NCBI RefSeq assembly: GCF_965363235.1
Contig: NC_134847.1
Location: 50,592,805 to 50,656,804, forward strand
Origin: Mytilus galloprovincialis
Taxonomy: Eukaryota; Mollusca; Bivalvia; Mytilida; Mytilidae
Length of the DNA: 64,000 nt
Direction of reading: 5' to 3'
The notes beneath the pieces were generated by a model. The model ran no database searches and was not told the origin of the DNA. It worked only from the letters and a program-made list of their open reading frames with translations. Within the stretch, counting starts at the first letter, position 1; the number at the start of each line of letters is the position of its first letter. A program made the position numbers and the translations under genes. Positions 56,201-59,200 of the stretch are shown here, piece by piece.

Positions 56201-59200
56201 AAACCAAATAAAATCTATGATAAGAAAATCAATGGAATATTTAACAGCTTTGAGCTGTCAATTCGTGGCTGTCAGTGCCTTGTGTTAGTGCGTTGATTCT
56301 TTTGTCTTTCTTATAGTTGTTTTTGTTCTTGGTACTAGTCTGATTTTCCTACCGTCTCCACATGATTTTGATGTTTACATGCTTTGGTGTTTCACTGGTG
56401 TGCAATGTTGGGTAAGGTTATGTGTTGACATGCATGTTAAAATGGATATTTCTTCCATCATTGGTTTCAGCCTTAATCAAGCCATGGCTTTTTTAATTGA
56501 TTCACATTTTATTATCCATGGCCTTCCGCGGCTAAAACGTAAAATCACAAAAATACTGAAATCCGAGGAAAGTCCCTAATCAATGGCAACATCAAATGAT
56601 AACACATCAAACGAATGGACAACAACTGTCATTTGCCTGACTTGCAGTTACAGTTTGCTGTACGCGTAAACCTGTAGCAGTTTACATTCTTCTAATTTGG
56701 ATATTTGGTTGATAGTTGCCAACGTACCATCTCATCTTGTCTATATTGCATAATTTATCATTAGGACCGCATATAAACATCTGATATTACGATCAGTTTT
56801 TGGTGGGGGTTTGTGTTGCTTAGTCTTTAGTTTTCTATGTTGCGTTTTGTGTAGTATTGTGTTTCTGTTTCTGTTTGTGTTTTTTTCTTTTAGAATGCAT
56901 TTGTAGAATAATTAGGCACCAATGATAAGTGTCAATAGCATAGCTTCACAATGCTCTTCAAATTTGTATTTATATGGCTTTATAACTATTCTGATCTGAG
57001 CGCACTGATGAGTCGTATGTAGATGAAACGCGCGTCTGGCGTATAAAATGATAAGCCTGGAACCTTTGAAACTATTCACACATTCAAACCAGTAAAGTAC
57101 AATGACAAGAAGAATTTTACTCCAAACTGATTGATTTTGTAAAGTTTCAAAAGGAATCAACAACTTTAATCAAACATACTGTATGAGGTACTGTGAATTA
57201 ATTTATTTTCGTGGGTATGAATTTTCGTAGATTGAGGAAAACCAGCATTTTCCTGGATATTTGATTTCATGGTTTTGCCAATCTCTGTTTATAAAACCTA
57301 TAGAAAATGTGTAATTCGTTGAACATTTGAATTCGTGGTTCACCTGTCCCAACTAAAACCACGAAAATTGACACCCAACGAATAATAATGAATCCACAGT
57401 ATAAGTATTTCCAGGCAAATAAATTATTATAATGTTTATTTTGATACTGTTCGAATGTTAGCATCAAAATTCAAACAAATATCCAATAAAAATCTGTTAA
57501 AGGTCTACTGAGATTTAAAAAAACCCCGTCGTTTATAAATGAGATGACATTTAACAATTAAAAGTTACCAGACATGTATGATTTATGGCATACCATATAC
57601 ATTGGTAGTACTTATTACAAGATATGTCGTGTCGATGCATTTGTCATGGAATAACTTAACAAATAAAAATCATTCATGAATAACTTATCATTAATAAACC
57701 ATATGAACGATTGTCGGTCAATAATTTGTGAAATCCTTCCTACGTTGATAGTTTATCGATCGGTAGCATCCTATCATATGATAACAAAAACATGTGTACA
57801 TTGATAAGGGACCGAGGATAAATCTCCTTTATTATCCCTTTTTGTTTAAAAATATATGGATACTACTGAGATGAGAAAGTTTGCTTATCGTATTCATTTG
57901 TTTTAATAGTATACATTGATGGAAGACTAAAAAACGTGAACAGATGCCTGTTTTTCCCATTTCCAGTGTCCTATTTCTTACTCGTACTGTACTATCTGCC
58001 AAAATTTAGATGTTTATTTGTACTTTTAAAGTTGACAAGCAACTCGTAGTTTGCAGATTGAAAATATCACTGTTAGTGGCAAATATAGTCTGATAGTTTC
58101 TATGATTGTGTTGTTTTCACACACACAGCTGTCTACATGACTGAAACAGTATTAATAGACCAAAATATGCACGTCACTACTATAGAAATTACGTTATGGT
58201 TGTTTCAATTACATATCTTTTAAAAGACTTGATGTAATAACTATGTAAATGCACATAGCATATCATCATTTAAATGTTTAAAAGCCTAATGACAAATCTT
58301 AAATTAATAGTTTTATTCAGAATGCTTACACAATTAATATTTCTACTAGACTCTTTATGCTGATCGTCAGGTGAACCAAATGAAACGGTTTAAATTTAAT
58401 GAATATTTTTTATTCGAAAGCATCTGATAATTTAAAAAATAAAAATTCTTAGGCATTTCACACATTAATTTCTGTTTTAAATTATATGGATTTATAATAT
58501 GAATTAATACTGCAAGTATTCATTCCAACTGTTAGTTATTTTTTCATCTTCTGAACACTTGCCAATGTTGTTTTCCATTTGTTGCTTGTTGGCTTTATAA
58601 ATATTTTGATATGAGCGTCACTGATGAGTCTTATGTAGACGAAACGCGCATCTGGCGTACTAAATTATAATCCTGGTACCTTTGATAACTATTATTGGTG
58701 TTTCAGGAACAGAATTTAATTAAATGATTTTCTGTTCTGTAAAGGTACAAACTGTTTCACATTTCTTGTTGTAATAAAACATATCCTAGATATAAGAAGT
58801 TGTGGTATGAGTGTCAATGAGACAACTCTGCATCCAAGTCACAATTTGTAAAAGTAAACCACTAGAGGTCAAAGTACTTTATTTACTCAAAGCTCGGAGC
58901 ATATGTGCCTATATATAATAGTATGATATGTGTTTCTGGAATGCTCTTTTTTTCGGTAAATCTCAAGAGAACATTAGTTAATACATTAAAACACAACTTT
59001 TTGTGCAATTAACTATGTAATCTGCAATTCAAATACGGAAATGCACCTTCATTATCATTAATCGATCATTAGTTTTGTAGAAGCAAAGTTATGAAAGACG
59101 ACTTTATTTGTTGAGTACGGAGGTAGACTTTTCCAACAAATTGTCGGCATTCCTATGGGAACAAACTGTGCGCCTCTTCTTGCCGAACTCTTCTTATTTT

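What the first reader, a model, noticed from the sequence alone, without database searches (positions are those of the whole stretch)
58615..58658. Hammerhead self-cleaving ribozyme with intact core inside a dispersed mussel-type repeat
All conserved parts are present in the right order and spacing: CTGATGA core, 3-bp stem II with a 7-base loop, GAAA, and a UC cleavage site, plus a 6-bp stem I. The repeat around it is otherwise unexplained and non-coding, so the ribozyme gives it a probable identity as a self-processing (retrozyme-like or Penelope-associated) RNA element. Hammerheads in invertebrate repeats are established; whether this family has been described I cannot say.
Basis: partly seen in the sequence, partly recalled or inferred. 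Interest (0 to 1): 0.87.

Follow-up and report, generated by a model that had tools for sequence, protein, structure and literature searches.

The report
Decayed hammerhead ribozyme in animal repeat
The sequence does hold the core of a small self-cutting RNA, but it is one worn copy of a minimal kind already reported as scattered through animal genomes, mussels included, probably left by a Penelope-type jumping element, so it is largely ordinary.

Summary
At 58615-58658 (+) there is a hammerhead core (CTGATGA, 3-bp stem II, GAAA, UC cleavage site 58652/58653) with a 6-bp stem I. A full descriptor finds it once in the window and in 0 of 300 shuffles. Three further copies lie in the window: 57000-57042, 54052-54095 and 32727-32770 (-), each damaged in a stem or the core. 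They are dispersed, not tandem; this copy's similarity to two of them stops at one point 40-41 nt after the cleavage site.

This matches minimal, helix III-poor type I hammerheads already reported as dispersed in animal genomes and in pseudo-LTRs of Penelope-like elements, mussels included (passages of PMC7761336; section of PMC7229834). A broken reverse-transcriptase stretch follows at 59095-59748; its link to this repeat and its Penelope identity were not proven. Four copies show no compensating change; no genome was held. Verdict: real motif, decayed copy, known kind, low interest.

The parts
58558..58693 (+). Copy B58 of the dispersed repeat that carries the motif
   Evidence: blastn within the window: 80% to 56944-57076 over 136 nt, 92% to 54021-54130 over 110 nt, both stopping at 58693; alignment A1
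58615..58620 (+). Stem I, 5' strand (GCGTCA)
   Evidence: sequence; pairs with 58653-58658, two G.U
58621..58627 (+). Catalytic core CTGATGA
   Evidence: sequence
58628..58640 (+). Stem II GTC/GAC with 7-nt loop
   Evidence: sequence
58641..58652 (+). GAAA, remnant stem III (A-U plus C.A mismatch) and UC; predicted cleavage after 58652
   Evidence: sequence; comparison with three copies
58653..58658 (+). Stem I, 3' strand (TGGCGT)
   Evidence: sequence
56944..57076 (+). Copy A57 of the repeat; hammerhead at 57000-57042, core intact, stem I lacks one base, one stem II pair is G.U
53919..54130 (+). Copy C54 of the repeat; hammerhead at 54052-54095, core changed (CTGGTGA)
32732..32904 (-). Copy D32, old; hammerhead remnant at 32727-32770; blastn similarity to the other copies stops 1 nt past the predicted cleavage site
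59095..59748 (+). Broken reverse-transcriptase stretch ([12 protein letters not shown] and YIDDVL, in different frames); membership in the same element not shown
   Evidence: motif reading recalled; no Pfam or NCBIfam match

Best explanation
58615-58658 is a degenerate copy of a minimal type I hammerhead ribozyme. It sits about 41 nt from the 3' end of a dispersed, 5'-truncated retroelement tail, most likely of the Penelope-like class. In the source element, RNA would fold through stems I and II and, lacking a stable helix III, two copies would share a helix III made from the self-complementary ACGCGCGU segment (or a protein would assist) and cut between C and U (58652/58653 here), trimming multimeric or read-through transcripts. 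Shown: the motif, the four copies, the common stopping point of this copy's similarity to two others, the lack of stem III, the decay. Inferred: the Penelope origin, cleavage as a dimer or with protein help, the role in RNA processing. This copy is probably inactive or weak.
For: Motif with full descriptor, 1 in window and 0 of 300 shuffles. Four copies; the 44-nt motif is more alike than its flanks in all 6 pairs of copies, e.g. 34/44 against 43/87 for B58-D32. This copy's similarity to the 57 kb and 54 kb copies stops at the same base, 58693, while its 5' extent differs (58558 and 58585). ACGCGCGU is intact in 3 of 4 copies. Literature: minimal type I hammerheads without helix III are dispersed in non-coding parts of animal genomes, map in some cases to pseudo-LTRs of Penelope-like elements, and may cleave as dimers (PMC7761336 passages); mussels hold Penelope-like elements with atypical type I hammerheads (PMC7229834 section 14); Penelope is named the most abundant transposable element in M. 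galloprovincialis, 86,269 copies, beside a large unclassified share (PMC4792442 passages); in an anole element the ribozyme cleaved only with added protein (PMC11167929 passages), although its authors say they earlier saw self-cleavage of such hammerheads with Mg2+. Reverse-transcriptase motifs follow at 59095-59748, and at 32-33 kb a related piece (33012-32910) lies 5 nt before the tail in the same orientation.
Against: No Rfam match at gathering score. The predicted minimum-energy folds are not the hammerhead (z -0.25; hammerhead stems I and II -4.2 against -9.4 kcal/mol for the monomer, dimer pairing -13.3 against -27.9); such models do not count the core's non-canonical contacts. No pair with a change on both sides, and shuffles pair as well. 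The 57 kb and 54 kb copies align about 20 nt beyond the common stopping point (to 57096 and 54150), so the 3' end is not perfectly sharp. The reverse-transcriptase stretch lies downstream of this copy, separated by a different dispersed repeat (58780-58877), and matches no Pfam or NCBIfam family, so it may be a separate insertion. No Penelope endonuclease domain was matched in the 12 open stretches scanned with Pfam (2, 10; the rest of the window was not scanned). The anole ribozyme was not needed for insertion in vitro.
Confidence: 0.7

Rival explanations
1. The repeat is a non-autonomous retrozyme: a small tandem unit with a type I hammerhead that is excised as a circular RNA and moved by another element's enzyme.
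For: Mussel retrozymes with about 5000 type I hammerheads and abundant circular RNAs are described (PMC7229834 section 14).
Against: The copies lie 1.6 kb or more apart (coordinates); no tandem array overlaps them; stem III is nearly absent, whereas most invertebrate type I hammerheads of this kind are said to form a stable helix III (PMC7761336 passage). Retrozyme sequences were not on hand to compare.
Confidence: 0.13
2. The repeat is a short dispersed element of another class (SINE-like or a non-autonomous DNA element) that carries an old hammerhead as a passenger without function.
For: The reverse transcriptase is not shown to belong to the repeat; all four copies are decayed; no compensating change.
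Against: The motif is better kept than its flanks in all 6 pairs of copies (for pairs with D32 the downstream flank may not be homologous, which lowers its flank figure); common stopping point with different 5' extents.
Confidence: 0.14
3. Chance resemblance of a repeat to a hammerhead.
For: Scores below the Rfam gathering threshold; predicted folds are not hammerheads.
Against: 0 of 300 shuffles; two further copies give type I hammerhead as their only Rfam match at E up to 1 when scanned alone, though copies of one repeat are not independent; 13 core positions agree 11/13 or better between this copy and each of the others.
Confidence: 0.03

Closest known systems
Minimal type I hammerhead ribozymes of Penelope-like elements (Cervera and de la Pena 2014; Lunse et al. 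2017; both known here only as cited in PMC7761336; the papers are not held)
   Same: Core, stems I and II, nearly no helix III, dispersed non-coding copies in an animal genome
   Different: Link to a Penelope open reading frame and pseudo-LTR not shown here; this copy has an additional stem III mismatch
Hammerhead of the anole Penelope-like element PAc (PMC11167929, passages)
   Different: There the open reading frame starts at stem II; here the ATG of the core meets TAG after four codons
Mussel retrozymes (PMC7229834, section 14)
   Same: Type I hammerhead in a repeat of a likely similar host
   Different: Those are ~350-390-bp repeats giving circular RNAs; here no tandem unit
Rfam RF00163 Hammerhead_1 and RF00008 Hammerhead_3
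   Same: Best-scoring families for the three better copies
   Different: 23.8-27.9 bits, below gathering scores 34 and 48.5

Membership tests
Hammerhead ribozyme, type I | Invariant core CUGAUGA and GAAA with NUH cleavage site | tested here: met
Hammerhead ribozyme, type I | Three helices around the core | tested here: inconclusive
   Stems I and II met; stem III only A-U plus mismatch; minimal variants lack it by description (PMC7761336)
Hammerhead ribozyme, type I | Rfam covariance score at or above gathering | tested here: not met
   0 of 4227 families; comparison motifs in viral contigs also fall below
Hammerhead ribozyme, type I | Compensating changes in stems among copies | tested here: inconclusive
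   0 of 11 pairs changed on both sides in 4 copies; no genome held
Hammerhead ribozyme, type I | Self-cleavage at the predicted site | not testable with these tools
   needs RNA
Penelope-like element | Reverse transcriptase with GIY-YIG endonuclease in the same element | tested here: inconclusive
   broken reverse-transcriptase stretch 59095-59748 near but not shown to be joined; no Pfam or NCBIfam match; no GIY-YIG in 10 further open stretches between 54.3 and 63.1 kb; the rest of the window was not scanned
Penelope-like element | Hammerhead in pseudo-LTR, tandem or partial-tandem copies | tested here: inconclusive
   three tails in one orientation within about 4.8 kb (53.9-58.7 kb), but the longest stop-to-stop frame between tails is 106 aa and has no Pfam match
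Retrozyme (animal) | Small tandem repeat unit (about 170-400 nt) with hammerhead | tested here: not met
   Tandem Repeats Finder shows no array over the copies

The most novel reading that the evidence does not exclude
In copy D32 the similarity to the other copies stops 1 nt past the predicted cleavage site, with a reverse-transcriptase piece and the tail in one orientation. If real, this insertion was copied from RNA whose 3' end was made by the hammerhead, which would give the unexplained ribozyme of Penelope-like elements a role in defining insertion ends. The evidence is one old copy; the test for continuing similarity lacked power, and a global alignment can be carried on past the site with gaps.
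Probability: 0.08. Interest if true: 0.5.

Novelty: already known. Interest (0 to 1): 0.17.

Why it matters
Hammerheads in Penelope-like elements are widespread and their role is called still a mystery (PMC7761336 passage). This copy adds an example of the minimal form with a self-complementary stem III segment in a dispersed tail, but not a new principle. A genome-wide count of where insertions end relative to the cleavage site would test a role directly.

Tried and rejected
Retrozyme reading: rejected as the main reading because there is no tandem unit. Type III reading: the top Rfam family for this copy is type III, but that match leaves out nearly the whole closed stem I of the model (1 base for 13) and reads the outer strands as stem III; the two other scored copies match type I and the 6-bp stem I with open ends is type I, so type III was rejected.

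Relatives elsewhere: the exact 30-base core pattern gave 0 stretches in viral contigs. A degenerate pattern gave 8 viral and 3 bacterial stretches. By eye 8 of 8 viral ones have a type I layout with a long stem III (printout); L005-L008 are near-copies of one another there; I do not take any for a relative of the repeat. The 3 bacterial ones were seen only in that printout and in an Rfam scan without a match at gathering. A search with the 128-aa reverse-transcriptase piece in viral contigs gave 23 pattern matches and no relative. Plasmids: no match. Own genome: none held. Distinctive letters of the repeat: 0 papers of the library's 5.39 million (main texts only). General core letters: 151 papers, 30 listed, none read.

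Protein identity of 59095-59748: Pfam and NCBIfam nothing, even at E up to 10. PDB: the 128-aa piece matched 267 sequences at E up to 1, 60 shown, nearly all named as fluorescent proteins or constructs with one (best E 0.00068), judged chance; the 57-aa piece had one weak match, a retron-type reverse transcriptase, E 0.98. No structure was predicted. Ten further open stretches of 70-106 aa were scanned with Pfam: one match above its cut-off, a PAN domain at 62738-63055 (-), not related to the repeat. Target-site duplication of B58: one 6-base match at uneven distance, judged chance.

D32 ending at the cleavage site: similarity downstream is not above random window segments (fractions at least as good 0.10-0.91), but the control stretch upstream is not either (0.33-0.64), so the test is without power.

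Full report
Observation. The sequence was read directly. A descriptor of these parts finds one place in the window on either strand and none in 300 dinucleotide shuffles; it was written after the fact.

Rfam. No family reaches gathering score in the window. This copy gives 27.4 bits to Hammerhead_3, the copy at 57 kb 27.9 to Hammerhead_1, and the copy at 54 kb 23.8 (whole-window E-values 0.13, 0.012 and 0.26, where other sub-threshold rows, mostly micro-RNA families, score higher). As a yardstick I looked at viral contigs fetched with a degenerate core pattern: 8 of 8 show a type I layout with a long, looped stem III by eye, four of them (L005-L008) nearly the same sequence. Seven loci (4 of these viral ones and the 3 bacterial) gave no match at gathering. 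Of the 4 viral loci scanned with looser settings, 2 matched Hammerhead_1 (L001 28.8 bits; L005 26.1 and 30.4 at two places) and 2 (L002, L003) did not at E up to 1. So the gathering score is strict here. These yardsticks were chosen by a pattern taken from the window and are not proven ribozymes.

The repeat. blastn of the window against itself shows this copy (58558-58693), 56944-57076 (80%), 54021-54130 (92%) and a distant one on the minus strand, 32825-32732 (68%); the 54 kb and 32 kb copies share a longer stretch, 176 nt at 70%. This copy's similarity to the 57 kb and the 54 kb copy stops at the same base, 58693, 41 nt after the cleavage site, while its beginning differs (58558 and 58585). 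Against a sharp end, the 57 kb and 54 kb copies align with each other about 20 nt further (57096, 54150). The 44-nt motif is more alike than its flanks in all 6 pairs of copies, for example 34/44 against 43/87; the pairs are not independent, and the downstream flank of the 32 kb copy may not be homologous. Decay: 58650 is A where three copies have G; the 57 kb copy lacks one base in stem I and has a G.U in stem II; the 54 kb copy has CTGGTGA; the 32 kb copy has lost stem II and one base each of CTGATGA and GAAA. Three of these differences (58650, GACG to GATG in the 57 kb copy, GGCG to GGTG in the 54 kb copy) fit decay at CpG. Among 11 pairs in 4 copies 86% of 43 cells pair, no pair changes on both sides, and 500 of 500 shuffles reach each measure. 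Sliding the partners lowers pairing to 10-47%, which is expected for a structure taken from these copies; one slide (+3) even has a slightly higher covariation score (0.125 against 0.106). So covariation says nothing for the structure here.

Folding. The minimum-energy folds of this copy and of the 57 kb copy are not the hammerhead. With only canonical stems counted, the hammerhead pairing of this copy is -4.2 kcal/mol against a best fold of -9.4, and a two-strand version with shared helix III -13.3 against -27.9; for the 54 kb copy 0.6 against -8.5 and -15.3 against -27.3. The model does not count the core's own contacts. ACGCGCGU, intact in the three other copies, is self-complementary, which suits a shared helix III between two copies; in this copy the change at 58650 puts two C.A mismatches into it.

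Neighbourhood. A reverse-transcriptase stretch ([16 protein letters not shown] in one frame, [10 protein letters not shown] in another, then 128 aa in the first frame again) lies at 59095-59748. It is broken by frame changes and stops and matches no Pfam or NCBIfam family. That these are reverse-transcriptase motifs, and that the enzyme is of a Penelope-like or related type, I take from memory. Between it and the hammerhead tail lies another dispersed repeat (58780-58877, 6 other places in the window) and after it a further one (60482-60685, 7 other places). On the minus strand a related reverse-transcriptase piece (33012-32910, 70% over 105 nt) lies 5 nt before the hammerhead tail (32904-32732) in the same orientation. 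So the two occur near each other in both places, but in opposite order, which a partly tandem element could give and so could nested insertions. No GIY-YIG domain was matched in the open stretches scanned with Pfam.

Known work. I saw passages of PMC7761336, PMC6155905, PMC11167929, PMC10294476 and PMC4792442, and passages and section 14 of PMC7229834. They say that minimal type I hammerheads lacking helix III are found in thousands, mostly dispersed, in many animal genomes and map in some cases to pseudo-LTRs of Penelope-like elements; that they may cleave as dimers; that mussels carry such elements as well as retrozymes; that Penelope was the most abundant transposable element in Mytilus galloprovincialis; and that an anole Penelope-like ribozyme cleaved only with added protein and was not needed for insertion in vitro. 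The 2014 and 2017 papers cited for the first point are not held. A search for letters of this repeat found 0 papers, so whether this very family is in print is open. Literature searches used: (listings).

Judgement. A real hammerhead-derived motif, of a kind already described in this sort of host, in a decayed copy without a usable stem III. The likely mechanism in the parent element is cleavage of multimeric or read-through transcripts by pairs of minimal hammerheads or with protein help; that is inference. The one loose end worth a genome-wide count is the copy at 32 kb whose similarity stops at the cleavage site.

Noticed in passing
window 32732-33012 (-): A reverse-transcriptase piece sits 5 nt before a hammerhead tail in the same orientation, and the tail's blastn similarity to other copies ends 1 nt past the predicted cleavage site.
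   Followed up: partly
window 25763-27931: Inverted repeats of 118 and 102 nt (96% and 91% complementary) 1.7-1.9 kb apart, with inner 34-nt palindromic units: looks like a DNA transposon with long terminal inverted repeats.
   Followed up: partly
window 60482-60685: Dispersed repeat with 7 other partial matches in the window, lying after the reverse-transcriptase stretch; possibly the 3' end of that element.
   Followed up: partly
window 58774-58892: Another dispersed repeat with 6 other matches in the window on both strands.
   Followed up: no
window 13042-13654: Tandem array of a 147-bp unit (about 4 copies, also seen as a 294-bp unit).
   Followed up: no
L005 3990-4041 and 4634-4683: Two type I hammerhead-like motifs about 640 bp apart in one viral contig, both below the Rfam gathering score; similar layouts in the other 7 viral loci fetched.
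   Followed up: partly
window 62738-63055 (-): Open stretch with a PAN domain (Pfam PF00024, E 3.3e-07, above cut-off): probably an exon of a host gene.
   Followed up: no
window 59365-59748 (+): The translated piece matches fluorescent proteins in the PDB at E 0.00068 over about 44 residues; taken as chance.
   Followed up: no
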